46,204 nucleotides of DNA from Paludibacteraceae bacterium (GTDB lineage: Bacteria > Bacteroidota > Bacteroidia > Bacteroidales > Paludibacteraceae): NCBI GenBank assembly GCA_017384225.1, contig JAFNUD010000049.1, positions 1 through 46,204 of the forward strand, read 5' to 3'. Numbering within the stretch: the stretch's first letter is position 1; every line of letters starts with the position of its first letter. The position numbers and the translations under genes were made by a program. The notes under the pieces are model-generated. The model saw only the letters and a program-made list of their open reading frames with translations. It had not been told where the DNA came from and ran no database searches. Shown here piece by piece: positions 5,750 to 32,814 of this stretch.

Positions 5750-6994
5750 CTAAAGGCTCAACAATATCTCCACGATACGTTCTGCGGCGTGGCCATCCCA
5801 GAGTGGTGGGATAGCCCCCAGTTGCCATTGCCCCTCAAAGAGCACATCCAATGCTGGTTTCACCGCTTGTGGATTGGTACCAATCAGTCGGTTCGTACCG
5901 ATAGTGCATGTTTCAGGTCGTTCTGTATTATCGCGCAGGGTGATACATGGCACCCCCATTACCGTGGTCTCCTCGGTGATTCCACCAGAATCGGTCACGA
6001 CCACCTTAGCATGATCTACCAGGTAGTTGAACTCCAGATAGCCCATAGGTGCTACAATATGCAGGTTAGGGAATAGCTCCGCGAGTTGCTCTTCATTTCC
6101 CCAAAGGTTGTAGAATATCTTTGCGGTACGTGGGTGGATTGGGAAGATGATAGGCAGACCATGTACGTTGGTAATGATTTGCTCCATGAGGGCTTTGAGG
6201 TGTTGCTCTTCGTCCACGTTAGCAGGACGGTGCATGGTCATGACCACATAATTTTTCTCTGTGAGTCCCAGCTCATCATAGACGGCAGGCTTGCGGAATC
6301 GTGCGCGATTAGCCAACAATGTATCAATCATCACGTTACCTACCCACCACACACGTTGTACATTGCGCTTAAAAGCGTACTGTTCTTCTTCAAGAACAGG
6401 TAGGTTATGAGGCGATGAGGCGATGAGGCGATAGGCATGTATATCAGCTATGCTGTCCTCCTTGCCTTTAGCCTCTAACCTTTCACCTTTACCCTCTAAC
6501 GACGCTCCCTGCAATAGCAAGTTTTTATTCGCCACTTCGCTGGTGGTGAACATATAGTCGGCGAGGGAGTCGGTGACCATGCGGTTGATTTCTTCGGGCA
6601 TGCTGAGGTCCCAACTGCGGATGCCAGCTTCTACGTGGCAGACGCGGGTATTGAGTTTCTTGGCAACGATGGAGCATGCCATGGTGCTGGTGACATCGCC
6701 TACGACGAGTACCAGATCGGTAGGGTTGGCCATGAGGTCCTTCTCAAATGCAACCATGATGTTGGCGGTTTGCTCGGCTTGTGTGCCGCCACCACAACCG
6801 AGGTTGACGTCGGGCATAGGTATGCCGAGTTCCTCGAAGAAGGTGTCGGACATATTCTTATCGTAGTGCTGACCAGTATGCACGAGACGGTAGTGGATGT
6901 CTTTGCCCGCTTGTGCTGCCGCTTGAATGGCTTTGATAAGTGGCGCAATCTTCATGAAATTGGGGCGTGCGCCTGCGATAAGGGTGATTAACAT
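5750..6994 (-). CDS. wecB: UDP-N-acetylglucosamine 2-epimerase (non-hydrolysing), first paralog
   Basis: A 414-residue non-hydrolysing UDP-GlcNAc 2-epimerase making UDP-ManNAc for surface polysaccharide. It begins MLITLIAGARPNFMK and contains HTGQHYDKNMSD (39-50), GDVTSTMA (99-106), HVEAGIRS (120-127), PEEINR (133-138) and the UDP site TDSGGITEE plus TERPET near the end. Start at 6994 is chosen because family homology begins there; upstream in-frame codons extend into non-family sequence. Residues ~164-205 are an extra segment absent from the family, placed just before VWWVGNVMID and listed separately. A second paralog lies at 29002-30150, with only moderate similarity by eye. Confidence 0.93.
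   Translation of the reverse strand: MLITLIAGARPNFMKIAPLIKAIQAAAQAGKDIHYRLVHTGQHYDKNMSDTFFEELGIPMPDVNLGCGGGTQAEQTANIMVAFEKDLMANPTDLVLVVGDVTSTMACSIVAKKLNTRVCHVEAGIRSWDLSMPEEINRMVTDSLADYMFTTSEVANKNLLLQGASLEGKGERLEAKGKEDSIADIHAYRLIASSPHNLPVLEEEQYAFKRNVQRVWWVGNVMIDTLLANRARFRKPAVYDELGLTEKNYVVMTMHRPANVDEEQHLKALMEQIITNVHGLPIIFPIHPRTAKIFYNLWGNEEQLAELFPNLHIVAPMGYLEFNYLVDHAKVVVTDSGGITEETTVMGVPCITLRDNTERPETCTIGTNRLIGTNPQAVKPALDVLFEGQWQLGAIPPLWDGHAAERIVEILLSL
6380..6505 (-). repeat. In-frame palindromic insert in wecB-like gene
   Basis: The insert encodes LEGKGERLEAKGKEDSIAD and then IHAYRLIASSPHNLP, about 42 residues between the family blocks ANKNLLLQG and VWWVGNVMID. The DNA is a palindrome-like composite: arms of reiterated GAGG(C/T)(G/T)A units flank a hairpin core with AGC-tat-GCT inside GGCA/TGCC. 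Inserts with the same core and frame occur in four other places in the window. Confidence 0.75.
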
Positions 6995-7096
6995 ATATTC
7001 GTAGTTTTTTATTTTAGTTTCAAATGGAAAGTGTATAGTTTCAAGGCAGGGGGACGACACCGCATATCCATGACCTGATTCTGCCTAAACCTTTAG

Positions 7097-8461
7097 TTAA
7101 AACGTAACTGTCTGCAGGGTATTTTTTTGCCATTCTTTATCAAAGAACATTACATAGTATATAGGTAAATAAGCAACTCCATTCTCTACCTTTACATTTC
7201 TCTCATTAGAGAATACAATCGCATTATGTATGCCATAATCTTTATTACTCAATAGCCCATTGAGCGCACTATGAATAGTATAGTCTCTACCCGATTTTAC
7301 TTCTATCGGCAATACAGAAGTATGTTGATAGTCATCAATGATGAAATCCACCTCACCCTTTTGACGATTATCATAATAAAACAATGGATAGCCATGAGTT
7401 GATAATTCTTGTGCAACAACACTTTCATACACTGCCCCAAGATTAATACTTCGTTCATTTTGCAGTATAGGCTGAATATTGGTATCATATAACTTAGCAG
7501 TCAATAATCCAACATCATTTAGGTACAGCTTCAACAGATTTTTTTGTAGCGATTCTGACAAAGGAAATTTGGGATTAGCAATAGCATTCACTCCAAGTGC
7601 TATGGCAGAAGATAATAGATATTCAAACTCATCTACATAACGAGCATATCGGTCCCCTTTCTGTCCCTGTATATCTTTGACGACAACACGTTTTTTCTTA
7701 TTTTCCATTTGCGATACAATCATCGAATAGATGCGATGTATCAACAACTTTCTACTTGCCTTCTCCTCATACTGAGAAGCATCTGCTTCGTACATCGCGG
7801 CAATGGCATTTTGCAATGTGCGTACATTCATTATATTATGGGTTGCCAAATACTCATTTACAACATCAGGCAGCCCACCTACTAATAGATAGCGACGGAA
7901 TAAATCCAACAGTTTATTGTGTTGTTCCTCCGATAAAGATTGCTGTTTATTGAAATGATCATACACATCAGCAATTGCAATTTTTCCATAATTATTTGCC
8001 CAAAGAAATTCTTCAAAATCCAGTGGGTACATCTTCTTGAATATCACACTACCTACTGGTATGGATGTCGTATGACGCAATGCCATTCCCAATGCACTGC
8101 CACTCGCTATAAAATGAAATTTCTTATCTTCTCGCAGGAACTTCAAAAGGGTAAAGTACTGAGGATAGCATTGTATCTCATCAATAAAAATGAGCGTATT
8201 ATTATATTGCCCAAGTTTATCGCCAGCTACAGAACTTAAGCGCAAATAAAACTCATCTATATTATGTACATGCATGAACAATTGTTCACTCTCGTTATCA
8301 GTCACAAAGTTTATCTCTACATAATTGTCAAACAATCGCTTTCCTGCTTCGCGTATCGCATATGACTTACCGACTTGGCGAGCACCTTCTATCAGTAGAA
8401 TTTTATCCGAATTAGAAGTTAAATGCGTTTCTATGTATGTAGTAATCTTGCGCTTCAACAT
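7097..8461 (-). CDS. DUF4143-type AAA ATPase
   Basis: A 454-residue member of the large prokaryotic ATPase family with an N-terminal AAA domain and a C-terminal DUF4143 region. Walker A is GARQVGKS near residue 30, Walker B is LIFIDEIQ near 90, and the sensor-like FIASGSALG follows. The C-terminal part ends with an endonuclease-like KGEVDFII...LPIEVKSG motif (E-V-D-F and E-V-K). Such genes are scattered in many copies in Bacteroidales; their role is unclear and a selfish or DNA-linked function has been suggested. It has its own promoter and three 33-bp-spaced repeats in its leader. It interrupts the polysaccharide locus and is probably an independent unit. Confidence 0.9.
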   Translation of the reverse strand: MLKRKITTYIETHLTSNSDKILLIEGARQVGKSYAIREAGKRLFDNYVEINFVTDNESEQLFMHVHNIDEFYLRLSSVAGDKLGQYNNTLIFIDEIQCYPQYFTLLKFLREDKKFHFIASGSALGMALRHTTSIPVGSVIFKKMYPLDFEEFLWANNYGKIAIADVYDHFNKQQSLSEEQHNKLLDLFRRYLLVGGLPDVVNEYLATHNIMNVRTLQNAIAAMYEADASQYEEKASRKLLIHRIYSMIVSQMENKKKRVVVKDIQGQKGDRYARYVDEFEYLLSSAIALGVNAIANPKFPLSESLQKNLLKLYLNDVGLLTAKLYDTNIQPILQNERSINLGAVYESVVAQELSTHGYPLFYYDNRQKGEVDFIIDDYQHTSVLPIEVKSGRDYTIHSALNGLLSNKDYGIHNAIVFSNERNVKVENGVAYLPIYYVMFFDKEWQKNTLQTVTF

Positions 8462-8466
8462 AGTAA

Positions 8467-8548
8467 ATTACACTTTTCAATAGATTTTTTATGCAATTAA
8501 TTACACTTTTCAATATAATTTGCATCCATTTTATTACACTTTTCAATA
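8467..8548. repeat. Three direct repeats spaced exactly 33 bp (iteron/operator-like)
   Basis: ATTACACTTTTCAATA occurs at 8467-8482, 8500-8515 and 8533-8548, each start 33 bp after the last, about three helical turns. All three lie between the promoter of the DUF4143 ATPase and its start codon, so they would be in its 5' leader. Direct repeats phased on one DNA face suggest binding sites for an autoregulator, perhaps the ATPase itself (inference). Confidence 0.8.
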
Positions 8549-8559
8549 TAATTTTGCTG

Positions 8560-8591
8560 CAAAGGTAAATATTTTTTCGTTTATATGCAAA
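8560..8591 (-). promoter_or_regulatory. Bacteroidales sigma promoter of the DUF4143 ATPase
   Basis: Read on the minus strand: TTTG at 8591-8588, 20 nt, then TACCTTTG at 8567-8560. This is the Bacteroidetes -33/-7 pair. Transcription would start near 8553, just before the three 33-bp repeats. Confidence 0.75.
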
Positions 8592-8658
8592 TTTTGTTGG
8601 ATAAAAATAATATATTTACCATTTTTTTGCATTTTTCATTCTAATCTATGATTTCGTT

Positions 8659-8945
8659 TTTTAACAAAAATACGCTGCGCTACGCTTGCTATATAAATAT
8701 TTAAGAATCACACTTCATACTTTGTTTTGCTCATAGGAGCAACACGTTGCTGGATAGCAAAACAAAGTTATATTCTTGATGTTATTTCTTAATTCATTCT
8801 TTATTTTTAATTATTTTTGTAGGCATTGCAAATGCCGTATTTATGTTTCAAAATAATCGCAACAGCACTAATTGTCTTTATATATAATCGTGCTTATATC
8901 CAATAACCAATATCCAATAGCCCATACCCAATACTCAATCACCAA
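8659..8945. repeat. Intergenic hairpin train and CCAATA-rich tract
   Basis: The gene-free region holds an ACAAAAATACGC...GCTATATAAATA unit (8664-8700) and a nested hairpin TTTTGCT/AGCAAAA with inner AGCAA/TTGCT (8724-8764), where other copies have AGCAG/CTGCT. A GGCATT/AATGCC hairpin follows (8822-8836) in the usual ATTTTTGTA/GTATTTATG frame, and then a tract of CCAATA(A/T)-type units (8899-8940). The first three parts follow the same order as the blocks at 15787 and 16588, but the CACCAATGCAG hairpin is missing. Confidence 0.8.
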
Positions 8946-9030
8946 AAATATAATTACAATGATATTTATCGGCGTTTTTGGCGGTTAAATATAACTATAA
9001 CTACAATTATATTCTTTCCGAGGATACGTA

Positions 9031-10197
9031 TTATTTAAACTGTGCCCAAAAGGCATCGTTCTTTTGGTTCTCGCGGGTCTGTTGTTGACTATCTGGATAG
9101 TTCTCGATGAACCATGTAAGGAACTTAGCATAGTCAATCTTTTCGCTGAGCATTTTCTCGCGGCGTGCTGCATATAGGGCTCGACGCTCTTCCACTGGCA
9201 TAGCCACCAATGTCTCTACAGCATTATATAGCGCCTCTACCCCACTTGGTTGTAGCGAGCCATCATTGCGACGGATCGTAGATTCTTTGCTAAGTGGAGT
9301 GGCATGTATGCCATAACCGAGTTGATAGACATCTTCCAATTCGCGCAGATACCCTATTCGACCCACAAAGTCATTGAATCGTACAAAGGGTGTACCTAAT
9401 ACGCCTGCCTCGGCAGCCATCGTTTGGCTATCGCCAATATAGAGCGAAGCGAAAGCCATCACGTGGTGCATGTCGAGCGGATTAATGCGAATGCGGTATA
9501 GCTCAAATTGTGGTTCTAATTCGCGTTCAGATGTGATATATATCTGTCCATGAGGCATTAGGATATCAATGAGCCGTTGCGCTATTTCTGTGTTTATGCC
9601 ACGTATTCCATCGTCGTGATGAGCATTGAGTGAAGCAAAACGCAAAATAAAATATGGTTTGCTGGTATCTATGCCATAGTTCTCTACGATGGTTTTGTCT
9701 GCTGTAAAATGATTTGGATGAAGATATGCCAATTCGTGGTAGGAGGGGTAATGCACAGAACGCTTTTCAAGAGGTGTATTATCGCATACAACAGGTGATA
9801 GAAGAGTCTGCATAAACGGGCCGGCAATTTTCGCAAAAGCAGGAACAACTGCTATATCATCCTCACCTGTATTGACAGAGTATCGACCTAACGCCTTTGA
9901 TACATGTGCCACTTCAGGAGTTGAACCGCTAAGGATATTGATTTTATGTTTAATACAGAAGCCAAATATCTTCCAATCGCGTACCACCATATCCCATAAT
10001 ACGCTCATTTTGCTTTTGCGATGGGCAATAGGCAGAATATTGTGATAAGAGATTTTACTGTTTTGGCATAGTTCTTCCAATATATCTTTGGTCTTAATCA
10101 GCACATATACTTGATGACCATGGTCTTGCCAGTTTTTGATGGCATTTTTGTAAAGATGAAAATGCGCAGGGTGGCTAAGTTGAACCAGTATATTCAT
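9031..10197 (-). CDS. DUF354 family protein (glycosyltransferase-like)
   Basis: A 388-residue DUF354 protein, a family related in fold to GT-B enzymes such as UDP-GlcNAc 2-epimerases and MurG-like transferases. It starts MNILVQLSHPAHFHLYKN. The C-terminal half has the nucleotide-binding-like IGDSQTMAAEAGVLGTP-FVRF block. DUF354 genes are commonly found in archaeal and bacterial surface-glycan clusters; the activity is not established. It is the last gene of a tight operon (1 bp after the hexapeptide transferase), so it probably acts on the same glycan. Confidence 0.85.
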   Translation of the reverse strand: MNILVQLSHPAHFHLYKNAIKNWQDHGHQVYVLIKTKDILEELCQNSKISYHNILPIAHRKSKMSVLWDMVVRDWKIFGFCIKHKINILSGSTPEVAHVSKALGRYSVNTGEDDIAVVPAFAKIAGPFMQTLLSPVVCDNTPLEKRSVHYPSYHELAYLHPNHFTADKTIVENYGIDTSKPYFILRFASLNAHHDDGIRGINTEIAQRLIDILMPHGQIYITSERELEPQFELYRIRINPLDMHHVMAFASLYIGDSQTMAAEAGVLGTPFVRFNDFVGRIGYLRELEDVYQLGYGIHATPLSKESTIRRNDGSLQPSGVEALYNAVETLVAMPVEERRALYAARREKMLSEKIDYAKFLTWFIENYPDSQQQTRENQKNDAFWAQFK

Positions 10198-10198
10198 A

Positions 10199-10720
10199 CT
10201 ATTTCATTAAAAGTCTAATATTCACTTGTTTTATTTCTTGCTTAAGCGAGCAAATCGTGTACTCAGGTATATCCTTTTCCACAGTTATGCCACTAGAAAT
10301 CACAGCACACTGTCCAATTCTTACACCAGGCATAATAGTGCAACGCACTGCCACAATAGCATTCTTACCTATGACAGTTGGTTTTACCTCTGCTGCAAAT
10401 ACATTTTTCCATGTTTCAAATGGATTAAAGTGTGTCAAGATCATCGAGTCTGCATTAACGCTCGCCCCGTCGCAGATATAGATATACTCAGGATACATAT
10501 TGTCTAGAAAGCAATATCTACCTATATAAACTCCTTTACCGATATGACATCCTCTCCAACGATGGAATAAAATACGTAATGAATTAATTGGACAAGTATA
10601 TGCCCAATGACTCAAAATTGTATTCAGCACTTTTCTACATGCCTGCTTAACTGTACGCTTAGGATGGCCATACGGAATTCGCATAGCTTCTCTTATTACC
10701 CAATCTTGACAATTTGACAT
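10199..10720 (-). CDS. Hexapeptide-repeat (left-handed beta-helix) acyltransferase
   Basis: A 173-residue LbH transferase. Imperfect hexapeptide repeats run from ~55 (GCHIGKGVYIGRYC) through the loop with LTHFNP to VIGKNAIVAVRCTIMPGVRIGQCAVISSG. The His in the LTHF segment is the likely catalytic base, as in maltose/galactoside O-acetyltransferases. The donor may be acetyl-CoA or, given the ACP 5 bp upstream, an acyl-ACP (inference). Operon neighbours are ACP (upstream) and DUF354 (downstream). Confidence 0.85.
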   Translation of the reverse strand: MSNCQDWVIREAMRIPYGHPKRTVKQACRKVLNTILSHWAYTCPINSLRILFHRWRGCHIGKGVYIGRYCFLDNMYPEYIYICDGASVNADSMILTHFNPFETWKNVFAAEVKPTVIGKNAIVAVRCTIMPGVRIGQCAVISSGITVEKDIPEYTICSLKQEIKQVNIRLLMK

Positions 10721-10725
10721 ACTGA

Positions 10726-10944: not shown

Positions 10945-10949
10945 AATCT

Positions 10950-13570: not shown

Positions 13571-13577
13571 ATCATTA

Positions 13578-14330: not shown

Positions 14331-14334
14331 ATTA

Positions 14335-14565: not shown

Positions 14566-14598
14566 ACTTTATATTTTTAGTTATTAATATTTTCGCCA

Positions 14599-14630
14599 CA
14601 AAGGTACTACTTTTTTTTGACACTACCAAA
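14599..14630 (-). promoter_or_regulatory. Promoter of the ACP-SDR-KASIII-FkbH-ACP cassette
   Basis: On the minus strand TTTG (14630-14627), 20 nt, TACCTTTG (14606-14599). It lies across the stop of the FemAB-like gene, so the cassette can be expressed independently of it. Confidence 0.75.
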
Positions 14631-15765
14631 TTTTCCCTAATTTTAGTATGTTCACGCCCCATTCTCCTATCTTGTATAGCAATGGTTTGCGAATGTGCAA
14701 ATAGCGCCCATACTTCACCACTTCGCCACCAAACTCCATCTTAAAGTCGCGTACACCATATGGTTTATCGGGTACGCCCGCTCCCATAAAATCAAACATA
14801 GGTATGCCGTTCTGTTTCGCATACTCTATGGTTGCATACGTAGCCATCACCGATGGGTATTGCTCACGATATTCCTCATCCAATCCACAGACATACCACT
14901 CGTATATCGCTTTGCCAGCAAAGATGGGGCACATCATTCCGCCTATCACTTTACCTTCAAACTTCACCAATAGGTACTTCCCCAATCCATTGCGATAGAA
15001 CTGCAAGAAGAAAGCTTCGCTCCAAAGCGGTGTGCGCACTTTTTGGCGATAGAGTTGCTTGAGAATGCGATACCATTCGCGTATCTCTTGCTCGGATTGG
15101 GGATCAACTATTTTAACCCCATTCTTCATAGCCTTTTTCACCTGGCGATTGCGTTGCTCGCTCATGGTATGTGTAGCAGTGCATGCCACTTGTATGTTCA
15201 AATGTGGTTGATAAGCGAAGCCATTGGCCTCAAATACAGTTCTCCATTTCGAGTAGTCGTGAAAGTTCCGTGTTTCTATGTATATTGGCTTTTTTAGGCG
15301 AGAGGTTAGAGGCAAGAGGCGAAAGGCTTGATTATCAGCTTTGCTGTCCTCCGTGCCTTTACACTTTAAACTTTCAACTTTACATTCCTTCACCGCCTTC
15401 AGCAGTGCTGCCACCTCATCATCTGTTGCATCCTCTGCCAAGAGTGGTCCACCAATGATGATGGCACGACGGGTGAAGAACTGTTTCAGTACACTGCGCT
15501 CACGCGTGATGTAGCCTATGCATACTGCTTTTAGGCGATAAGGCGATGAGGCGATAAGGCGTGAGGCAGGCATATCGGCTTCGCCGTTCTCCGTGCCTTT
15601 AGCCTCTTCTGCAACAGCAAAGACAAACAGCACCATCTCCTCAGGATTGGCCGCATAGAACTGATACGCCTCTGGCGTTTGGAACCAGGTGGCGTAAGGA
15701 GAGCGTTCCACGAGGGATTGCCACTGCTGTGGGTCTATGTCGTTATATGTTAGTATGTTGATCAT
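14623..15765 (-). CDS. FemAB/GNAT-like aminoacyl- or acyltransferase
   Basis: A 380-residue protein of the FemAB-like superfamily (double GNAT fold), which transfers an aminoacyl or acyl group to peptidoglycan or a glycan. Supporting features are the N-terminal WFQTPEAYQFY, the RRAIIIGGPLL block, the C-terminal GNAT-like VIGGMMCPIF, and AKQNGIPMFDFMGAG followed by KMEFGGEVVKYGRY. Start ATG at 15765 is chosen because MINILTYNDIDPQQW begins the family; an in-frame start at 15807 lies in repeat DNA. Residues ~53-79 and ~127-158 are two extra segments of the in-frame palindromic element. It is placed directly upstream of the acyl cassette. Confidence 0.85.
   Translation of the reverse strand: MINILTYNDIDPQQWQSLVERSPYATWFQTPEAYQFYAANPEEMVLFVFAVAEEAKGTENGEADMPASRLIASSPYRLKAVCIGYITRERSVLKQFFTRRAIIIGGPLLAEDATDDEVAALLKAVKECKVESLKCKGTEDSKADNQAFRLLPLTSRLKKPIYIETRNFHDYSKWRTVFEANGFAYQPHLNIQVACTATHTMSEQRNRQVKKAMKNGVKIVDPQSEQEIREWYRILKQLYRQKVRTPLWSEAFFLQFYRNGLGKYLLVKFEGKVIGGMMCPIFAGKAIYEWYVCGLDEEYREQYPSVMATYATIEYAKQNGIPMFDFMGAGVPDKPYGVRDFKMEFGGEVVKYGRYLHIRKPLLYKIGEWGVNILKLGKIW
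15292..15387 (-). repeat. In-frame palindromic insert 2 of the FemAB-like gene
   Basis: The insert encodes CKVESLKCKGTEDSKAD and NQAFRLLPLTSRLK between LLKAV and KPIYIETRNF, which are adjacent in the family. The hairpin core is AGC-ttt-GCT within AGGC/GCCT. Confidence 0.75.
15529..15609 (-). repeat. In-frame palindromic insert 1 of the FemAB-like gene
   Basis: The insert encodes EEAKGTENGEADMPASRL then IASSPYRLKA, between VFAVA and VCIGYI. The hairpin core is GGC-ttc-GCC within GGCA/TGCC, a compensated version of the AGC/GCT core seen at 6380-6505. Confidence 0.75.
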
Positions 15766-15786
15766 CTTTTTAGTGTTATATTTTTC

Positions 15787-16100
15787 TCTAACAAAAATAC
15801 GCTTCATTACACTCGCTACAAAAATATTAAAAATCTCGTTTCATACTTTCTTTTGCTCATAAGGAGCAGCTCACTGCTGGATGAGCAAAACAAAGCTATA
15901 TTCTTGTTGTTATTTCTTAATTTATTCTTTTGATCTTGCTCACCAATGCAGTACGCTGCATTCATTTGAGCCAAGACAAAAGATATGTTCTTTATTTTTA
16001 ATTATTTTTGTAGGCATTGCAAATGCCGTATTTATGTTTCAAAATGTATTCTGTTTTTAACAAAAATACGCTCGTTACACTCGCTACAAAAATATACAAA
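15787..16100. repeat. ~310-bp hairpin-train repeat, left copy flanking GxxExxY gene 1
   Basis: The order of modules is: AACAAAAATACGC...GCTACAAAAATA; nested hairpin TTTTGCTCAT/ATGAGCAAAA with inner AGCAG/CTGCT; hairpin TTGCTCA/TTGAGC with inner ATGCAG/CTGCAT; hairpin GGCATT/AATGCC (16013-16027) in ATTTTTGTA/GTATTTATG flanks; AACAAAAATACGC...GCTACAAAAATA. It is nearly identical, about 801 bp apart, to 16588-16897, so the GxxExxY gene sits between two direct repeats. Confidence 0.88.
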
Positions 16101-16121
16101 ATCTTGTTGTTATATTTTGTT

Positions 16122-16158: not shown

Positions 16159-16170
16159 TACAAAATAATT

Positions 16171-16563
16171 TTAGTTCACAAAATTAGGTACTATCTTGTA
16201 TTTCAACGGTTGTTCACCAAAGTTAATCAATATACCTAACGGCATATTAGTAGCCTTAAGATAATTTAGCAATTGTGCTGTATGCTCCGACTTTAATTTC
16301 TCTACCGATTTTAGCTCCACCACAATATTATCATAGCATACTAAGTCTGCTTTATATGTTCGCTCCAACAAATGGCCCTTGTATGATATTGTTATCAGTT
16401 TTTCTGTTTCAAATGGGATTCCACGTAATCCTAACTCTATATTCAATGCTTCATGATATACCAACTCCAAAAATCCACGCCCCAATTCATTCTGTACTTC
16501 CATAGCAGCGCCTATTATTGCAAACACCTCGTTTTGGAATTGTATGTTATTCGATCTATTCAT
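16171..16563 (-). CDS. GxxExxY protein, copy 1 (PD-(D/E)XK-like)
   Basis: A 130-residue member of the GxxExxY family, named for GRGFLELVYHEAL (G-x-x-E-x-x-Y), followed by ELGLRGIPFE, YKADLVCYDNIVVELKSVE (D and E-x-K of a PD-(D/E)XK-like core) and HTAQLLNYLKAT. The biochemical role is not established; the motif set suggests a nuclease-like fold. ATG at 16563 is chosen because homology begins at QFQNEVF soon after. The gene is flanked by ~310-bp direct repeats full of hairpins, and its paralog at 42000 has related hairpins in the same order, which suggests that gene and hairpins travel together (inference). Confidence 0.9.
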   Translation of the reverse strand: MNRSNNIQFQNEVFAIIGAAMEVQNELGRGFLELVYHEALNIELGLRGIPFETEKLITISYKGHLLERTYKADLVCYDNIVVELKSVEKLKSEHTAQLLNYLKATNMPLGILINFGEQPLKYKIVPNFVN

Positions 16564-16587
16564 TTGTTGTATATAGCTTATTTTCTT

Positions 16588-16897
16588 TTTAACATAAATA
16601 CGCTTCACTTCGTTCGCTACAAAAATATTAAAAAATCTCGTTTCATACTTTCTTTTGCTCATAAGGAGCAGCTCACTGCTGGATGAGCAAAACAAAGTTA
16701 TATTCTTGATGTTATTTCTTAATTTATTCTTTTGGTCTTGCTCACCAATGCAGCGCGCTGCATTCTTTTGAGCGAGAACAAAAGTTAACTTCTTTATTTT
16801 TAATTATTTTTGTAGGCATTGCAAATGCCGTATTTATGTTTCAAAATGTATTCTGTTTTTAACAAAAATACGCTCGTTACACTCGCTACATAAATAT
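16588..16897. repeat. ~310-bp hairpin-train repeat, right copy flanking GxxExxY gene 1
   Basis: It has the same modules and order as 15787-16100. The inner loop of the second hairpin reads ATGCAG-cgcg-CTGCAT here against ATGCAG-tacg-CTGCAT there, and the first unit reads AACATAAATACGC. The two copies could recombine and delete the GxxExxY gene. Confidence 0.88.
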
Positions 16898-16914
16898 CTA
16901 AAATCATGTTTTAT

Positions 16915-18573: not shown

Positions 18574-18890
18574 TCAGCCATGGCTGTGTTTTGCTCAAGA
18601 CGCGTAGCGGATTGGGGAGTTGTGCTGGCACAACGAAGCAAAACCTAATGTCCATTGGACTGATAGACTCCGAAAGACTATGAAAAGTTCGAAGAACATT
18701 ATAAGCCTTTGGTGGCGATTGGCTGCTTAGCAGACAAAGAGTGAGGGAATGATTGTCCGAATCCATGCTTGCATGAGTGAGGGAAATCAGACCAACACTC
18801 GTATGATGAACCTGTTCAGCATTGCCACCAAATATTCGTTGAAATATTTTTGTATATTTTTGTAGCAAGCGAAGCGCAGCGTATTTTTGA
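18574..18890 (-). repeat. Structured repeat, class I variant (copy E)
   Basis: A ~317-bp element nearly identical to 21028-21345. In minus-strand order: a TAGC...GCTACAAAAATA-type unit, closing stem TTTGGTGGC/GCCACCAAA (18832-18824 with 18716-18708), an inner CTGCT/AGCAG hairpin, a GTTC-ttc-GAAC mini-hairpin, GTCC/GGAC, then TTTTGCTT...GAGCAAAA enclosing GTTGTGC/GCACAAC, and a final CAGCC/GGCTG hairpin. It occupies the whole space between the divergent AlbA_2 and hipB promoters. Confidence 0.85.
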
Positions 18891-18996: not shown

Positions 18997-19347
18997 ATGG
19001 GAGATATTGAATACAATAGTAGCAATTTACTATACCAGTTTGACACAGAAACACCCGAGGATATCATGCGCCTATTGGCGCAGCAGCTCAAAGCCCGTCG
19101 TCTGGAGCGCGGACTATCGCGCGAGGCACTGTCGTTGATGAGCGGTGTGCCCGTGTCAACAATCACCAAGTTCGAACAGCAAGCCACTCTCTCGCTTCGT
19201 CAGTATGTGGCGATATGCCAAGCATTGGGTTATAAGGAGCCTGTCAAACAACTTATGGCGCAGCCCATATACCATACGATGGAAGAATTAGAAACCATAC
19301 GCAACAACCAAGATCGTAAGCATGGACGCAATACATTCCGTAAATAA
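18997..19347 (+). CDS. hipB: HipB-like XRE-family antitoxin
   Basis: A 116-residue DNA-binding protein with a Cro/C1 helix-turn-helix at ~28-85 (RLLAQQLKARRLERGLSREA, then SGVPVSTITKFEQQA). It pairs with the HipA-like kinase, whose start codon lies 26 bp inside this gene, so translation is coupled. By analogy HipB binds HipA and represses the operon. An N-terminal extension of ~25 residues precedes the HTH. Confidence 0.88.
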   Translation: MGDIEYNSSNLLYQFDTETPEDIMRLLAQQLKARRLERGLSREALSLMSGVPVSTITKFEQQATLSLRQYVAICQALGYKEPVKQLMAQPIYHTMEELETIRNNQDRKHGRNTFRK

Positions 19348-20422
19348 GTTGCTGGTCTTTTACCGTCAGCAATGGGTAGGCACCCTCGGTCGCACACCTG
19401 ACAATACACGTTGTACCTTCCAGTATGCACCCGAATGGCTACAGAGTGGCTTCTCCATCTCCCCCTTGGAGTTACCCCTGCGTGCGGAGCTATTCATTGC
19501 GCAGCCTACGCCGTTCTACGGCAATTTTGGTATCTTTGAGGATAGTCTGCCCGATGGGTATGGTAGGTATCTGCTCAATCGCCTATTGCAGCGACATAGT
19601 GTAGATGAGCTATCGTTGTCGCCTCTTCAGCGTTTGGCAATAGTAGGATCAAGTGGTATGGGCGCATTGCGGTATGAACCAGAGATGTTTGAGGCCGAAA
19701 AGCACTTATTGCCCGAGCTCAACACCCTGCAACAGATGGCCCTGGATGTGCTATCAGAGAAGACAATGGAGGGGGTGGACACATTGTACTACAATAGTGG
19801 CAATAGTGGCGGTTGTCGTCCGAAATGTCTTTATCGCGATGATGAGGGGCAATGGATCGTGAAGTTTCGCCACACATACGACCCAATAGACATGGGAGAG
19901 CAAGAGTATCGATACAACCAGTTGGCTGAAGCCTGCGGCATCATTGTTCCGCAATATAAATTGCTGAGTGGTAGCTATTTTGCCAACAAGCGTTTTGATA
20001 TAGATGCAGCTGGGCAAGCGTTGCATGTGGCAACAGCAGCGGCATTGTTGCGCGAGAACATCCATCCGCCTAAGACGGATTATAAGGTGTTGTTGGCTCT
20101 AACGGGCTACATTACGCAGAGCCCAGGCGAAGTGGAGCAGATGTTCAGACGAATGGTGTTTAATGTGTTGATTGGCAACAAGGATGATCATGCCAAGAAC
20201 TTCTCGTTTATCCATCTGGAGGATGGGTGGCATCTTGCTCCAGCATACGACTTGACACGTTGTGTACAGGGGTACAATGGCGAGCACGCTACCTCTGTGA
20301 TGGGGAATGGGGTTCCCACGGAGAGTGATCTGCTCAAGGCTGCTGAGAGTATCCGTATTTCTCGTGCAAGGGCTATGGAGATTATCCACGAGATGAAAGA
20401 TTGCATTGCTTCCATGAGTTAG
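19322..20422 (+). CDS. hipA: HipA-like serine/threonine kinase toxin
   Basis: A 366-residue HipA-family kinase, somewhat shorter than E. coli HipA (440). The N-terminal HipA_N part (QWVGTLGR, then FGIFEDSLPDGYGRYLL) is followed by SGGCRPKCL (the GG-x-RPK-type ATP loop), WIVKF, the catalytic loop NKDDHAKNFSF and metal-binding PAYDLTR. HipA toxins phosphorylate glutamyl-tRNA synthetase or related targets; the target here is unknown. Start ATG at 19322 overlaps hipB. This is the only plus-strand operon inside the glycan locus, hence probably an insertion. Confidence 0.9.
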   Translation: MDAIHSVNKLLVFYRQQWVGTLGRTPDNTRCTFQYAPEWLQSGFSISPLELPLRAELFIAQPTPFYGNFGIFEDSLPDGYGRYLLNRLLQRHSVDELSLSPLQRLAIVGSSGMGALRYEPEMFEAEKHLLPELNTLQQMALDVLSEKTMEGVDTLYYNSGNSGGCRPKCLYRDDEGQWIVKFRHTYDPIDMGEQEYRYNQLAEACGIIVPQYKLLSGSYFANKRFDIDAAGQALHVATAAALLRENIHPPKTDYKVLLALTGYITQSPGEVEQMFRRMVFNVLIGNKDDHAKNFSFIHLEDGWHLAPAYDLTRCVQGYNGEHATSVMGNGVPTESDLLKAAESIRISRARAMEIIHEMKDCIASMS

Positions 20423-20908: not shown

Positions 20909-21027
20909 CACTGCCTTTGGCAGGGAATGGGCGATAAGGTGAAAGGTTAGAGGCGAAAGGCACGGATAGCGGCACGCCGCAGACTCCAGCCAATAGCCAA
21001 TAACCAATAGCCAATCACCCATAACTT

Positions 21028-21345
21028 CAGCCTCTAAAGGCTGTGTTTTGCTCAAGACGCGTAGCGGATTGGGGAGTTGTGCTGGCACAACGAAGCAAAA
21101 CCTAATGTCCATAGGACTGATAGACTCCGAAAGACTATGAAAAGTTCGAAGAACATTATAAGCCTTTGGTGGCGATTGGCTGCTTAGCAGACAAAGAGTT
21201 AGGGGATAATTGTCCGAATCCATACTTGCATGAGTGTGGGAAATCAGACCAACACTCGTATGGTGAACCTGTTCAGCATTGCCACCAAATATTCGTTGAA
21301 ATATTTTTGTATATTTTTGTAGCTATCTTTAAGATGGCGTATTTT
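21028..21345 (-). repeat. Structured repeat, class I variant (copy D), inverted relative to copy A
   Basis: Nearly identical to 18574-18890. The closing stem is GCCACCAAA (21281-21289)/TTTGGTGGC (21165-21173), one base pair longer and compensated relative to GCACCAAA. At the right end the GC-rich unit is replaced by a clean hairpin ATCTT/AAGAT between the same TTTTTGTAGC and GCGTATTTT flanks. Copies A and D lie in opposite orientations about 120 bp apart. Confidence 0.85.
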
Positions 21346-23784: not shown

Positions 23785-23789
23785 ATCGT

Positions 23790-24416: not shown

Positions 24417-24417
24417 A
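24409..24417. repeat. Left target-site duplication of the IS element
   Basis: TTATTCATA here and at 25733-25741, immediately outside the inverted repeats. Confidence 0.8.
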
Positions 24418-25732: not shown

Positions 25733-25750
25733 TTATTCATATTAAAAAAA

Positions 25751-27274: not shown

Positions 27275-27326
27275 ATCTCAAATGTAGCATTTTTATCCTA
27301 CCTTAAAAATTCTATTTTTCCATCAC

Positions 27327-28064: not shown

Positions 28065-29005
28065 AATATTCGTTTTACTAAATTCATCAATTGGTTCAAG
28101 GCATACGACAACACACAAGTGATTATCAAAATCAACAATATATTTATCGTTTTACTTGGCGTAAGAAATAGCAGAGATAATGGTCCTAATATCAATATAT
28201 GATGGACTAGATATACCTCATAGGACATATCATTTACAAATCGTAAACATTTTGGCTGTTTAACATCTATTTTGGTTAAAATAGCATATAGCACACCAAA
28301 TAAGAATATCGCTAATACACAATGTAGCCACACACTATAATGTGCCCACGTAGAATCGGTCAGTCGTGACAATTGAAAAAATACCATTAATATCGCCAAC
28401 CCCACTCCACTGACAACAGTTGTGATTGCATTTACCATTTTAGTATCAAAACGCCCCATGCACATTCCATATATATATAGTACAATCCATGCGGCTATAC
28501 TATACATTTTCTGCACAAATACAAATTCAACCACACTCACCAGTAATAGTAGTGATACAAATAAATATGGTTTATTTTTCAATAGATATTTCGTGATAGG
28601 AGTGACTAAATAACATATCATAATCACCGTCAGGAACCACATGTGATTAAAACCTTCTATTGATTTTGCAAAAGCCTGCAAGTTAAAAACATAAGGTATT
28701 AACTGTTTCCAAGATACTTGTTCAACACCAAAGATCGCATAAACACTAGCAAAGAGCAGTACAACAACAATAAATGGGATATATATTTTTACAACCCTTT
28801 TCTTATAGAAATCCATTGCAGATGATATTTCTACTTTTCCATACAAAAATCCCGATATCAAGAAAAATATTTGTACACCCACATTCAAGATAAACGCAAT
28901 CTGCTGATCATATCCTTGAGTGATATGACATGACACTATCAAAATCATCGCCATGACTCTGATAATTGATATTGCGTTACTTTGTGATGTACTTAATGCT
29001 TTCAT
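28061..29005 (-). CDS. Acyltransferase-3 family membrane protein
   Basis: A 314-residue integral membrane acyltransferase (AT3/OafA-type) with about ten transmembrane segments. It has the N-terminal motif [20 protein letters not shown], carrying the R and H of the family active site, then [11 protein letters not shown] and, further on, HMWFLTVIM. It probably acetylates the surface polysaccharide. It overlaps its neighbours by 4 bp on both sides (ATGA), showing tight operon packing. Confidence 0.9.
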
Positions 29006-30150
29006 CTGCTCGCTAAATATTCAATTATTCGCTCACACGCCTTCCCATCTCCATACGGATTCACCGCTTCGCTCATGTGGCGATAGATGTTGGCATCGTC
29101 AAACAACATACTGACGCCTTGCTCGATCTTCTCGCGATTGGTACCGACGAGCAATACTGTACCTGCCTCCACGGCCTCTGGGCGCTCAGTAGTATCGCGC
29201 ATTACGAGTACAGGTTTGCCTAATCCTGGTGCTTCCTCTTGTACTCCACCCGAGTCGGTGAGAATCAATGTACTATGCTGCATCATATATACGAATGGCA
29301 AATAGTCCAATGGCTCAATCAGGAACACATTCTCCGCCTTCTCGCCCAAGATCTCCAACACGGGCTTGCGCACATTGGGGTTCAAGTGCATTGGATATAC
29401 GAAATCCACATCTTGATACCGCTCTGCCAAGTGCTTGATAGCGTGGCAGATATTCAGGAATCCCTCACCGAAGTTCTCACGGCGATGTCCCGTAATCAGC
29501 ACCATACGACGATTGCCATCCAAACGCAGCACATCATAGCCCATCTGGTTGATCTTAGTAGCTACTTCGCTAGCCAATAGCTCATCGTTCTTCAAACGCT
29601 CCACTACCATCTGCAATGCATCAATCACGGTATTACCCGTCACGATAATCTGCTTCTCATCCACATGCTCACGCAAGAGATTCTCTTTCGCCAATCGAGT
29701 TGGCGAGAAGTGATGAGTGGTAATACGCCCTGTGATGAGGCGGTTCATCTCTTCAGGCCATGGGCTGTAGATATTACCTGTGCGAAGACCTGCCTCCACA
29801 TGCCCTACGGGTATCTGTTGGTAGAACGCTGCTAGGGCAGCTGCCATCGAGGTAGTGGTGTCGCCATGTACTAAGACGATGTCGGGTTGCACCTCACGGA
29901 GCACATCGCGCATGCCGAGTAGTATACGCGAAGTGATATCGTAGAGATCCTGATTGGGTTTCATGATATTGAGGTCATAATCAGGCACTATATCAAATAC
30001 TCTGAGCACCTGATCAAGCATCTCACGATGTTGGCCTGTTACACATACCACAGTCTGAAACTCCTCAGGCATTTCCTGCAGTTTCTTCACCAGTGGCGCC
30101 ATCTTTATCGCCTCTGGACGGGTACCAAATACTAATAATATTTTTTTCAT
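29002..30150 (-). CDS. wecB: UDP-N-acetylglucosamine 2-epimerase (non-hydrolysing), second paralog
   Basis: A 382-residue WecB-type epimerase starting [20 protein letters not shown]. It has [78 protein letters not shown] and TERPEA, all classic. It is more typical than the paralog at 5750-6994 and has no repeat insertion. It makes UDP-ManNAc or a related sugar; two paralogs in one locus suggest two different substrates or products (inference). Confidence 0.96.
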
Positions 30151-30201
30151 TATATCCTTGCCTATAAACTTTAATCTTTAAACTACGCCTTAGCGCTTAA
30201 C

Positions 30202-31251
30202 CTATCTCCACTTCATCACCCAGCAATATACCCTTGCCCCCAGCAGATTAATAATCCTCGCGCGGCGAGCGTAAGTTTTGCCTTGGTCAGCTATCACTAG
30301 TGGAAACACATTCAACTCCTGCAAACGGCGGATATACTCCTTCCGCTCATCATAAAACGACATTGCTACACGAGTCAACACCCCCGCTGCCATACTACTA
30401 ATCATCCTACGGAGCCATTGGCAACTTGGATGCTTTATTATCTGTTTGGATAAACTCTCAATCACAAACAAAAAGTCATTCACATTCTTGCGCAGTTTAT
30501 CCTTATTGCCTTGTGCTTGCGTGATACTTCCTTGACGAACTAGATAATTATACACCACTATCGGCGTACTATTTACTCGTTTAGCAGCTAGCATCATACG
30601 TGGCAACCACTCGGTATCTTCGTAGTGTATGCCAGGCGTAAACGTGCCTGTCAGTTCGCGATTTATCACGAACTGCCAGGCATAACAAGCATACCCCATA
30701 CGCTCATCCAAATACGTCCCCCCATCCACCACTTCGCGGCATGTATCCACTTGATGGGGAAACTTATTTGGCTGAAATACTTCGTATTCTCCTGCTTCTG
30801 CTTGCCTAACATTTTGATAATCAAACCTCAGCACATCCAAATTATCTCGCTCCACTTGTTCCAGCAAAGTCCCTAATACATTTGCTTGCAAATAGTCATC
30901 GCTATCGACGAACATGATGTAGTCGCCCGTTGCAGCCGCTATACCCGCGTTGCGGGCAGCGCTGAGGCCAGCGTTTTCCTGGTGAACCACTTTGATGTTC
31001 AGTTTATAGGTTATAGATGATAGGTTATAGGCGTTGGTATCAGCTTCGCTGTGTTCCTTGCCTTTAACCTTTAAACTATAATCTTTAACCTCATCGCAGA
31101 TTCGATCTGCAATCTCTCCGCTTCCATCAGTGGATCCATCGTCCACCAAAATAATTTCATAATCCTCGATATCTTGTACAAGCAAACTATCCACGCATTT
31201 GCGCAGATAAGGAGCGACGTTGTATATGGGGACGATGATACTAAGTTTCAT
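30202..31251 (-). CDS. GT2-family glycosyltransferase
   Basis: A 349-residue GT-A family 2 transferase. It has SIIVPIYNVAPYLRKCVDSL (4-23), EIILVDDGSTDGS (32-44) and HQENAGLSAARNAGI, followed by the metal-binding FVDSDDYL (D-S-D-D). Residues ~56-85 between ICDEV and IKVVHQENAG are extra relative to the family and belong to the in-frame palindromic element. It is cytoplasmic and adds one sugar to the lipid-linked repeat unit. Confidence 0.92.
   Translation of the reverse strand: MKLSIIVPIYNVAPYLRKCVDSLLVQDIEDYEIILVDDGSTDGSGEIADRICDEVKDYSLKVKGKEHSEADTNAYNLSSITYKLNIKVVHQENAGLSAARNAGIAAATGDYIMFVDSDDYLQANVLGTLLEQVERDNLDVLRFDYQNVRQAEAGEYEVFQPNKFPHQVDTCREVVDGGTYLDERMGYACYAWQFVINRELTGTFTPGIHYEDTEWLPRMMLAAKRVNSTPIVVYNYLVRQGSITQAQGNKDKLRKNVNDFLFVIESLSKQIIKHPSCQWLRRMISSMAAGVLTRVAMSFYDERKEYIRRLQELNVFPLVIADQGKTYARRARIINLLGARVYCWVMKWR
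30997..31086 (-). repeat. In-frame palindromic insert in GT2 gene at 30202
   Basis: The insert encodes KDYSLKVKGKEHSEAD then TNAYNLSSITYKLN. The hairpin core is AGC-ttc-GCT within GGC/GCC. It has the same frame and orientation as the inserts in the epimerase and FemAB-like genes. Confidence 0.75.
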
Positions 31252-31267
31252 TTTTTTAGGCGATTGG

Positions 31268-31645
31268 CTATTGGTTATTGGCTATAGGCGAAGGAACTCG
31301 ATGCATTTTCAATGATCGAATCATCTTGGCTATGGCCGCTATTTCTATATCTAACATTTGTCTCATTTCAAAAGAAATGTATCCTAGGTCAAGAGATATA
31401 TCTAGTTGACAATCAATTTCCATCAGAGATCCATATGCTATATCCAAGAAGTGAGCCTGCTCTTTAGGTGCTGTACGAGATAAACCTTCAGCGATATTAG
31501 AAGGGACTGATATTACCGCACGACGCATTTGATCTCCCAACGCATACTTTTCTTCTGCTGGAAAATGTTTTAACAAAGCATATACTGTCACAACTAATTG
31601 CCGTGACTTTGCATATACTTCTAATTTTTTATAACTGTTGTTCAT
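31268..31645 (-). CDS. Four-helix bundle protein (23S rRNA intervening-sequence protein family)
   Basis: A 125-residue protein of the S23/four-helix bundle family (YKKLEVYAKSRQLVVTVYAL, then MRRAVISVPSNIAEGLSR and FLDIAYGSLMEIDCQLDIS). These small proteins are encoded in rRNA intervening sequences and as stray genes among glycan genes in Bacteroidetes; their function is unclear. The C-terminus (VPSPIANNQ) runs into a (C)CAATA-type repeat tract, which probably altered the stop. It is flanked by such tracts on both sides (31258-31290, 31655-31727). Confidence 0.9.
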   Translation of the reverse strand: MNNSYKKLEVYAKSRQLVVTVYALLKHFPAEEKYALGDQMRRAVISVPSNIAEGLSRTAPKEQAHFLDIAYGSLMEIDCQLDISLDLGYISFEMRQMLDIEIAAIAKMIRSLKMHRVPSPIANNQ

Positions 31646-31654
31646 ATATCCTTT

Positions 31655-31727
31655 GTTGTGGCTATTGGCTATGGGCTATTGGTTTCTTCGCCTATCGCCC
31701 ATATCCTATCGCCTATATCCTATCGCC
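31655..31727. repeat. Tract of TATTGG and TATCGCC units
   Basis: Degenerate tandem GGCTATTGG and CCTATCGCC units lie between the four-helix-bundle gene and the next GT2 gene. The same motifs occur at 8899, 20990 and 31260, and the CATCGCC form also inside genes. Confidence 0.75.
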
Positions 31728-32814
31728 TCAGAAAACCCCACTTCTCCAATTTAAACAGTACCCGCTCCACAAAATACACCACTCCCCACAAATGATACTT
31801 CTTCAATCTTCTATACTGCTCAATAGGCAGTGAAAACATATCATAATCACGCAACACAGCGGCTGGTAATATTGACTCCAGATACTCACGACGTTCTTTC
31901 AAAATGATATCCTTATTCTTACCATTCGACTCCGATATACCCGTCATATCAAACACCGTCACGTCGATATTCGTATAAACCGTCTTCTCTCCTCCCAACA
32001 CAATTGCTCGCACATACCATTCCCAATCTGAGCAGATCTTCATCTCTTCGTTGTACAAGCCATATTTCTCAAATAAATCCCTACGGATATACGCACAGTC
32101 GTGATTCAATGTGCCTCGATAGAAATAGTAAAACGATTCTGGTGTGTAATCGCCACAGCCACAAGTATCCTTCGCCCGACGACCATCAGGATACTCTTTG
32201 ATCATGTTGCCGTACAAAATTGCAGGGCAATTTTCAAGGCGAGAGGCATCAGTTGGTGTAGGGTGTAAGGTGTAAGGTGTAAAGGCTTGTATATCGGCTT
32301 CACCGTTCTCCATGCCTCTAACCTCTAACCTCTCGCCTTTAGCCTCATCCATCATGCCTTTAGCCTTTAACCTTTCGCCTTTAGCCTGCTGCGCTTGAAG
32401 CGCAGCCATCATACGTTCAGTCACATCTGGGGCAGCAAGGATATCGCCTGAGTTGAGGATTTGAATATAATCTGTTTTGACAATTGGTGATTGGCTATCG
32501 GCTATTGCCAATGAAGTGTGATCATCGGTTACGACCCTACGACCAAGTGCAATTTCCAGACCTTTGTTCATGGCGTTGTAGATGCCCGTATCCTTCTCCG
32601 AAATCCACTTTAGGCGAGAGGCGATGAGGCGATGAGGCGATAAGGCGAGGGTAGATTCGTATTCACAAATCACCTTTACGCTATTATCTGTACTACCTCC
32701 ATCCACGATGATATGCTCTATATGCGGATAGGTCTGCGAAGCCACGGAATCAAGCGTTTTCTTTAATCCTGTAGCGTCGTTGTAGTTAATGGTTATGATT
32801 GAGAGTTTTATCAT
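31720..32814 (-). CDS. GT2-family glycosyltransferase with three repeat insertions
   Basis: A 364-residue GT-A family 2 (WcaA-like) transferase. It has LSIITINYNDATGLKKTLDS (4-23), HIIVDGGSTDNS (34-45), then SEKDTGIYNAMNKGLEIA and the metal site ILNSGD. The last block is interrupted by extra segments at ~54-67 and ~91-114, and a longer extra segment sits at ~142-196, giving about 90 more residues than expected. The C-terminal part has CSDWEWYVRA, with the conserved E-D/D-W acceptor motif. It is the first gene of the 32.8-25.7 kb block and has a good promoter at 32914-32945. Confidence 0.9.
   Translation of the reverse strand: MIKLSIITINYNDATGLKKTLDSVASQTYPHIEHIIVDGGSTDNSVKVICEYESTLALSPHRLIASRLKWISEKDTGIYNAMNKGLEIALGRRVVTDDHTSLAIADSQSPIVKTDYIQILNSGDILAAPDVTERMMAALQAQQAKGERLKAKGMMDEAKGERLEVRGMENGEADIQAFTPYTLHPTPTDASRLENCPAILYGNMIKEYPDGRRAKDTCGCGDYTPESFYYFYRGTLNHDCAYIRRDLFEKYGLYNEEMKICSDWEWYVRAIVLGGEKTVYTNIDVTVFDMTGISESNGKNKDIILKERREYLESILPAAVLRDYDMFSLPIEQYRRLKKYHLWGVVYFVERVLFKLEKWGFLRR
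32227..32391 (-). repeat. Large in-frame palindromic insert in GT2 gene at 31720
   Basis: About 55 codons encode AKGERLKAKGMMDEAKGERL, then EVRGMENGEADIQAF and a Thr/Pro-rich arm. The left arm is duplicated (two KGERL units). The core reads GGC-ttcac-CG here, a slightly degraded hairpin. Confidence 0.75.
32473..32655 (-). repeat. Two smaller in-frame repeat tracts in GT2 gene at 31720
   Basis: At 32614-32655 a GGCGATGAGGCGATAAGGCG-type tract encodes LALSPHRLIASRL. At 32473-32544 a tract with TTGGCTATCGGCTATTG encodes SLAIADSQSPI. Both interrupt conserved GT2 blocks without breaking the frame. Confidence 0.65.

What the first reader, a model, noticed from the sequence alone, without database searches (positions are those of the whole stretch)
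5750..32814. A palindromic element translated in frame inside conserved enzymes with a conserved peptide
Seen directly: the wecB-like gene (6380-6505), the FemAB-like gene (15529-15609, 15292-15387) and two GT2 genes (30997-31086, 32227-32391) carry extra segments at loop positions. The encoded peptides share K-G-x-E-(D/N/H)-(S/G)-x-A-D-x-x-A-(Y/F/S), often followed by RLIASSP. All are in the same orientation and frame relative to the host gene. The DNA core is a hairpin with compensated bases (AGC/GCT against GGC/GCC inside GGCA/TGCC). Known parallel: Rickettsia palindromic elements, which also insert in frame. A Bacteroidales equivalent with several copies in one glycan locus would be new to me.
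Basis: partly seen in the sequence, partly recalled or inferred. Interest (0 to 1): 0.88.

Follow-up and report, generated by a model that had tools for sequence, protein, structure and literature searches.

The report
Translated hairpin repeats in bacterial enzymes
In one lineage of Bacteroidales bacteria, short hairpin-forming DNA repeats sit inside enzyme genes and are read as extra protein loops, much like the palindromic elements of Rickettsia but built from seven- and eight-letter tandem units.

Summary
Observation confirmed. Five copies of a 33-nt core (GGCAnGGAnnACRGYnnARCYGATA...GCC), flanked by G-rich and C-rich 7/8-nt arrays, lie in frame and in one orientation in four glycan genes; no others in the assembled genome at <=3 mismatches. 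FemAB orthologues show clean gaps; solved homologues lack the wecB and GT2a segments. Four congeners carry the core: three at the same wecB loop, one of these also in GT2 and GT4 genes; one copy is intergenic.

The arms reach beyond this locus: without the core they are inserted in frame elsewhere (UvrA, RlmN; PurL- and MnmE-like), and the wecB and RlmN loops hold different repeats in different congeners. In other species the FemAB loop holds a whole in-frame DUF559 nuclease cassette, also found inside DegT aminotransferases.

In wecB the insert is less diverged at synonymous sites and more at protein level than its host gene: DNA-level, not peptide, conservation. Best reading: translated repeats that work like Rickettsia palindromic elements and are tolerated at loops. 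Mobility, and its enzyme, are not shown.

The parts
6403..6496 (-). Element in the wecB-like UDP-GlcNAc 2-epimerase gene (5750-7060): left arm 6467-6496, 33-nt core 6434-6466, right arm 6403-6433
   Evidence: query residues 186 and 236 align to 159 and 163 of 4neq
15534..15609 (-). Element 1 in the FemAB-like gene (14623-15807): short left arm, core 15565-15597, right arm of 8-nt units
   Evidence: 63-nt gap in 6 of 6 orthologues in the DNA alignment (6 of 10 fetched); all 10 in the protein alignment
15292..15387 (-). Element 2 in the same FemAB-like gene: left arm 15358-15387, core 15325-15357, right arm to about 15297
   Evidence: empty in 5 of 6 orthologues of the DNA alignment, the sixth (L060) has a short filler; L062 and L065 hold other palindromic inserts here
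31002..31092 (-). Element in GT2 gene 30202-31251: left arm 31063-31092, core 31030-31062, right arm to about 31002
   Evidence: absent from 5hea and 3bcv
32255..32386 (-). Element with doubled left arm in GT2 gene 31720-32814: left arrays 32317-32386, core 32284-32316, right arm 32255-32283
   Evidence: the L113 orthologue carries a diverged copy at this loop (4 mismatches to the core pattern)
32613..32646 (-). Right-arm-only array at another loop of the same GT2 gene; the L113 orthologue carries a full core element at this loop
1594..1620 (.). Short in-frame array in the aldehyde dehydrogenase gene (665-2080, +)
   Evidence: not compared with orthologues
20930..21019 (.). G-rich array, hairpin core (GGCACGGATAGCGGCACGCCGC...) and C-rich array with the same layout and a different core; taken as intergenic (only a doubtful 139-codon ORF covers it)
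31259..31721 (.). Arrays on both sides of a 23S-rRNA-intervening-sequence-type (four helix bundle) gene at 31268-31645

Best explanation
These are protein-coding palindromic repeats that work like Rickettsia palindromic elements: short hairpin-forming DNA segments that came to lie inside genes and persist because one of their frames is open and the extra peptide falls in a loop. A full copy is a left arm of about four G-rich 7-nt units, a 33-nt hairpin core, and a right arm of about four C-rich 7- or 8-nt units. Shown: presence, in-frame reading, absence from relatives, presence/absence and length polymorphism at the same loop, use of the same loops by unrelated repeats, and one intergenic copy. 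Inferred: that copies spread as DNA (local copying or gene conversion between array-bearing sites) and that the peptides have no selected function. Not known: the enzyme that moves them. That the protein keeps the loop is inferred from the open frames only.
For: Five cores in the window, 0 in 100 shuffles; none elsewhere in G000 at <=3 mismatches. Of 178 genus genomes searched with a 28-nt pattern at <=2 mismatches, 8 had a hit; five hold the element: G000 x5, G259 x3, G138 x1, G262 x1 (10 of 10 in genes and in frame) and G241 x1 (after a stop codon); the hits in G134, G226 and G245 have no arms. G259 has one further diverged copy, in frame, not counted here. Coding frame: 0 stops in 10 of 10 genic copies, 1 in the intergenic copy; no other frame is open in all 11. 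Absent from orthologues and solved homologues; array inserts in RlmN and UvrA are extra residues too. RNA-fold z below -2 in 8 of 11 copies. Inner-stem covariation. The wecB insert evolves unlike its host: dS 0.23-0.28 against 0.78-0.98, dN 0.12-0.13 against 0.035-0.046 in the three closest pairs.
Against: No target-site duplication was seen by eye in the FemAB alignment, and no excision. Ends vary between copies; the two arms of a copy match each other no better than arms of other copies (permutation p = 0.25). 3 of 11 copies have no fold signal (z -1.3, -0.8, +0.3). On covariation, two of five measures are not above shuffles (pairs changed on both sides 137/500, pair types 438/500), and few events may underlie the rest. 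Core copies in G000 (5) and G259 cluster on one contig each, which random mobility would not predict. No PF01797 transposase was found in G000, an 88% complete MAG. The deficit of third-position change in the wecB insert is absent in the G260, G262 and G325 comparisons.
Confidence: 0.68

Rival explanations
1. Tandem-array slippage in place: 7/8-nt G-rich minisatellites arose and grew inside permissive loops without dispersal of any element.
For: Arms are tandem arrays of degenerate units; the G138 wecB copy has an extra block; RlmN loops range from 5 to 26 residues in 30 loci; arm-only copies are common.
Against: A shared 33-nt core in several unrelated gene families cannot arise by slippage. 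The same unit strings recur at unlinked genes.
Confidence: 0.14
2. Contingency loci: 7- and 8-nt units are not multiples of three, so gain or loss of a unit would switch glycan enzymes off and on (phase variation).
For: Core copies lie in glycan genes; units of 7 and 8 nt; array length differs between genomes at wecB.
Against: Arrays are short and imperfect. Similar arrays sit in UvrA and RlmN. No off-frame allele was identified; stops flagged in some wecB rows were not analysed.
Confidence: 0.06
3. The inserts are selected peptides that give the enzymes a new property, such as partner binding.
For: Similar peptide KGxExxxAD in several gene families; same strand and frame.
Against: Only one frame is consistently open, so a shared frame is expected. 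dN/dS 0.44-0.79 in the wecB insert against 0.044-0.047 in the rest. Core sites change amino acids freely.
Confidence: 0.05
4. Non-autonomous partners of the in-frame DUF559 nuclease cassettes that occupy the same FemAB loop in other species; the nuclease cuts the site and repair copies in either cassette or palindrome.
For: Same alignment place in FemAB; DUF559 cassettes have palindromic arms and, in several, ends AGCCTACC...GGGGGTAGGCT, in FemAB and DegT hosts; both kinds of insert are found in glycan genes.
Against: No sequence match between cassette ends and window core was shown; G000 has no DUF559 hit at 1e-10; the loop may simply be permissive, since unrelated repeats share other loops too.
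Confidence: 0.07

Closest known systems
Rickettsia palindromic elements (RPE)
   Same: Palindromic DNA of about 100-150 nt found in frame inside conserved protein genes and also between genes, with a conserved open frame (PMC2229807 and PMC10969869, passages only; a Wolbachia report was seen only as a title in a reference list)
   Different: Different phylum; arms are tandem 7/8-nt arrays whose type and number vary; arm-only inserts are common; core copies cluster on one contig per genome
MITE-type repeats with ORFs (ERIC/RU-1, Correia 107-bp form, YPAL/RU-2)
   Same: Small stem-loop repeats fused in frame to genes (PMC2229807, passages)
   Different: No target-site duplication or related transposon end found for the window element
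BrickBuilt (Porphyromonas gingivalis MITE with a 23-nt minisatellite)
   Same: A Bacteroidales element that holds tandem repeats
   Different: BrickBuilt is reported as always intergenic, with 23-nt repeats (PMC4596501, passages); here 7/8-nt units, mostly in genes
REP/RAYT elements
   Same: Short hairpins in many copies (recalled; the abstract of PMC3733652 was seen in a listing)
   Different: In genes rather than extragenic; no PF01797 match in the own genome
Inteins and other in-frame homing elements (recalled), for the DUF559 cassettes only
   Same: A nuclease domain read in frame inside a host protein
   Different: Pfam listed no splicing domain at E <= 0.001 in the seven ORFs tested

Membership tests
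Rickettsia palindromic elements | Inserted in frame in conserved protein genes | tested here: met
   10 of 10 genic core copies in frame without stop; absent from homologues
Rickettsia palindromic elements | Palindromic, stable stem-loop | tested here: met
   z < -2 in 8 of 11 copies, not in 3 of 11; arms match only loosely
Rickettsia palindromic elements | Also found between genes | tested here: met
   1 of 11 copies, in G241
Rickettsia palindromic elements | Rickettsia host | tested here: not met
   Contigs of G138, G259 and G262 have the lengths of named Bacteroidales/Paludibacteraceae records
Rickettsia palindromic elements | Sequence relatedness to a described RPE family | not tested
   No RPE sequence was in hand
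MITE | Target-site duplication and ends shared with a full transposon | tested here: inconclusive
   No duplication seen by eye in the FemAB alignment; IS ends were not searched
REP/RAYT | Cognate Y1 transposase in the genome | tested here: not met
   0 matches of PF01797 in G000, 88% complete; the search rang in 5 of 14 control genomes
BrickBuilt MITE | 23-nt direct repeats, intergenic only | tested here: not met
   Units are 7-8 nt and copies are in genes
Phase-variable contingency repeats | Unit-number change within a clone | not testable with these tools
   No reads or clonal series available
Known structured RNA family | Match to an Rfam model | tested here: not met
   0 gathering-level matches in the window

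The most novel reading that the evidence does not exclude
This Bacteroidales genus hosts a whole class of translated mobile elements: nuclease-bearing DUF559 cassettes that insert in frame into glycan enzymes and stay in the protein (like inteins without splicing), and short palindromic, array-armed derivatives that use the same loops, so that enzymes accumulate foreign loops as a lasting part of the proteome.
Probability: 0.3. Interest if true: 0.9.

Novelty: new variant of a known kind. Interest (0 to 1): 0.74.

Why it matters
Protein-coding palindromes are best known from Rickettsia. A distant lineage with a different architecture, and with housekeeping enzymes among the hosts, makes the question of how genes acquire and tolerate foreign loops testable by comparing many congeners at the same loop. 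It also corrects annotation: KGERLEVKG- and RLIASSP-type segments are not part of these protein families. The in-frame nuclease cassette at one of the same loops offers a candidate mechanism.

Tried and rejected
A mistyped core pattern gave 25 hits against 33 for its reversed control and was discarded; it was redone correctly. The family-wide search at <=2 mismatches hit 28 of 200 genomes; of 29 hits outside G000, 28 were looked at and only the G138 one has arms, so the rest are taken as chance.

Co-change of both arms of a copy was tested and not supported (p = 0.25). A telomerase-like (DRT10-type) origin of the arrays was considered because units are G-rich and look genome-specific in the listed hits; only passages of the preprint PMC12632851 were seen (9-nt repeats, no 'bacteroid' in the text), and no reverse transcriptase was searched for, so it stays an idea. 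A sister family with a TAGCGGC stem was sought in G000: 4 hits at <=3 mismatches, 1 exact, and two of the other three fall on the FemAB1 element itself.

Phages: no match. Plasmids: one partial match, 32% of the query, in a Rhodococcus record. Viral contigs: 0 exact matches. Literature searches for such elements in Bacteroidales found nothing fitting; they cover only the open-licence library.
Full report
Setting. The window is contig C89 of a 2.17 Mb, 140-contig MAG (completeness 88%, contamination 5.8%). Contigs of congeners with the element have the lengths of named records: 51,981 bases (JAFYWK010000058.1) and 43,513 (JAGBZD010000084.1), both Paludibacteraceae MAGs, and 187,655 (SUXC01000003.1), a Bacteroidales MAG. 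The window holds a glycan locus with two UDP-GlcNAc 2-epimerases, FemAB-like, GT2, GT4, FkbH and acyltransferase genes, some named by weak family hits.

Observation. The five segments exist as described. A 25-nt core pattern gives 5 matches in the window and none in 100 shuffles, and no further match in the genome at <=3 mismatches (reversed control 1). Aligned, the copies show a left arm of 30 nt, a 33-nt core and a right arm of about 30 nt. FemAB copy 1 has a shortened left arm, GT2b a doubled one. RLIASSP follows the core in 2 of 5 copies.

They are insertions. For FemAB, 10 orthologues were fetched and six that lack both elements were aligned as DNA: copy 1 is a 63-nt gap in 6 of 6; for copy 2, 5 of 6 are empty and L060 has a short filler. 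In the protein alignment with all 10, L061 and L064 lack both segments too, while L062 and L065 carry other inserts at both places. In wecB, query residues 186 and 236 align to 159 and 163 of 4neq. In GT2a, residues 49/50 and 85 align to 53/54 and 61 of 5hea and 3bcv. Among 30 wecB loci read (66 of 178 genomes had a match), the loop varies in length and content and is already longer than in 4neq without the element; G000, G259 and G262 carry the core, as does G138, read separately. G260 has a right-arm-like array there without core.

Distribution. In 178 genus genomes the 28-nt pattern at <=2 mismatches hit 8. G000 (5 copies), G259 (3), G138 (1), G262 (1) and G241 (1) hold the element; the hits in G134, G226 and G245 have no arms. 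Ten of the 11 copies are in frame in glycan genes (wecB in four genomes, GT2, GT4, FemAB); the G241 copy lies directly after a stop codon. A twelfth, diverged copy (4 mismatches) lies in frame at the second loop of the G259 GT2 gene; it is not in the counts below. In the family sample (200 genomes, <=2 mismatches) the only exact match outside G000 is G138, and of 29 hits outside G000, 28 were looked at and only G138 has arms. In the order sample (393 genomes, <=1 mismatch) only G000 matched. Both are samples, so copies elsewhere are not excluded.

Frame. Over 65 nt around the core the coding frame has no stop in 10 of 10 genic copies and one in the intergenic copy; no other frame is open in all 11. 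A shared strand and frame is what survival in genes would leave and does not prove a selected peptide.

Structure. 8 of 11 copies fold with z from -2.1 to -6.5; FemAB1, G259 GT2 and FemAB2 do not (-1.3, -0.8, +0.3; RNA parameters, 100 shuffles). For GGC/GCC plus CRGY/RCYG, 96.1% of 77 cells pair (6 of 500 shuffles as high) and the covariation score is reached by 5 of 500; but pairs changed on both sides (2; 137 of 500) and further pair types (4; 438 of 500) are not above shuffles. The copies are related, so this is moderate evidence. The two arms of a copy match each other no better than arms of different copies (p = 0.25): outside the core the palindrome is loose.

Selection. For wecB between G000, G259 and G138, dS in the insert is 0.23-0.28 against 0.78-0.98 in the rest, dN 0.12-0.13 against 0.035-0.046, dN/dS 0.44-0.52 against 0.044-0.047. 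For G000 against G262 the insert has dS 0.40, dN 0.32, ratio 0.79. The insert has only 36 codons (31 with G262). Third positions differ less in the insert than in the rest of the gene without the 15 codons downstream (Fisher p 0.014, 0.029, 0.045 in the three closest pairs, not independent), and 1, 0 and 1 of those 15 differ. G260 and G262 show no significant deficit (p 0.16, 0.44), and G325, which lacks the core, an excess (14 of 16). My reading is DNA-level constraint or recent exchange of this stretch, not peptide conservation.

The arms are genome-wide. The 85-nt query gave 43 matches in G000. A strict array pattern found 25 arrays in 598 kb outside the window: 10 in 198 kb (5 in ORFs of at least 120 codons; every seventh contig) and 15 in 400 kb (12 in ORFs of at least 150 codons). 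The second set is not neutral: its contigs were chosen from those named in earlier hits, and nine hits lie in it. Resampled sequence gave 0.2 (244 kb, window included) and 1 (400 kb). Of the 17 in ORFs, one (L234) is in a repeat-rich ORF that may be no gene and one (L229) may be chance. Coding density was not measured, so no enrichment in genes is claimed. The window has 13 arrays in 46 kb. RlmN has 11 residues more than 3rf9 at its array and UvrA 8 more than 9gxk at the first of its two (the second lies outside the aligned parts). PurL-, MnmE- and RsmE-like are names from recall. The RlmN loop ranges from 5 to 26 residues in the 30 loci read (of 165 genomes with a match) and is filled by unrelated repeats, among them CCCTC...GAGGG palindromes. 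In 149 genomes of the order, 36 match a strict 7-nt array pattern, but the reversed control also hits many and in G000 gives 88 against 84, so the counts do not stand by themselves. In 20 loci from other genomes, 18 of 21 arrays were not in an ORF of 150 codons or more.

A nuclease at the same loop. L062 and L065 carry, at the place of FemAB copy 1, a whole DUF559 domain in frame (Pfam 4e-30 and 6e-32; alignment). A genus search with that domain matched 41 of 178 genomes, G000 not among them at 1e-10. Of 30 loci fetched, six have DUF559 inside a DegT/DnrJ/EryC1 aminotransferase ORF, with both families found by Pfam (L169, L170, L171, L173, L174, L196); L167 and L168 are FemAB and read the same as L062 and L065. 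Most of the rest are short ORFs (about 120-180 codons, one of 318). Five further rows with ORFs above 500 codons were not fetched. Of the nine long ORFs printed, five have GGGGGTAGGCT at the 3' side and four AGCCTACC at the 5' side, with inner CTCCCTAAAGGGAG-type palindromes. Pfam listed no splicing domain in the seven tested. That the window element depends on such a nuclease is conjecture.

Comparison. Anatomy and behaviour match Rickettsia palindromic elements as described in two reviews (passages of PMC2229807 and PMC10969869); relatedness by sequence was not tested. BrickBuilt, a Bacteroidales MITE with tandem repeats, is stated to be always intergenic (passages of PMC4596501). Searches listed no paper on such elements in Bacteroidales.

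Verdict. A real palindromic repeat, open in frame, polymorphic at loops, in a lineage whose genes hold many such inserts. New variant of a known kind; the mechanism of spread is open.

Noticed in passing
L169, L170, L171, L173, L174, L196 (DegT hosts); L062 = L167 and L065 = L168 (FemAB hosts): DUF559 nuclease domain of about 110 residues in frame with palindromic arms inside unrelated glycan enzymes; in several the ends look like inverted repeats AGCCTACC / GGGGGTAGGCT.
   Followed up: partly
window 16171-16695 and 42000-42497: Two GxxExxY (TIGR04256) genes; the first lies between (and overlaps) 93% identical 289-nt repeats at 15820-16108 and 16622-16910 with internal hairpin-type repeats.
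   Followed up: no
window 31268-31645: A 23S-rRNA-intervening-sequence-type four helix bundle gene sits between two GT2 genes with 7-nt arrays on both sides.
   Followed up: partly
window 5263-5724: Short protein with 20-residue repeats matching Pfam Bflower_3, just downstream of the wecB-like gene on the same strand.
   Followed up: no
window 18582-18866 and 21039-21323: 98% identical 285-nt direct repeats either side of two plus-strand ORFs (18997-20422) that look like a HipB/HipA-type pair (name from recall).
   Followed up: no
G408:C201, G488:C13 and C14, G411: Telomere-like G-rich 7-nt arrays in other Bacteroidales, in the listed hits with a unit typical of each genome (GGTTARG, GGTTATR, GGTTAGT); origin unexplained.
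   Followed up: partly
wecB loop in L117-L146; RlmN loop in L242-L271: The same loops are filled by several unrelated kinds of short repeat across the genus, so some loops seem to be general acceptors.
   Followed up: partly
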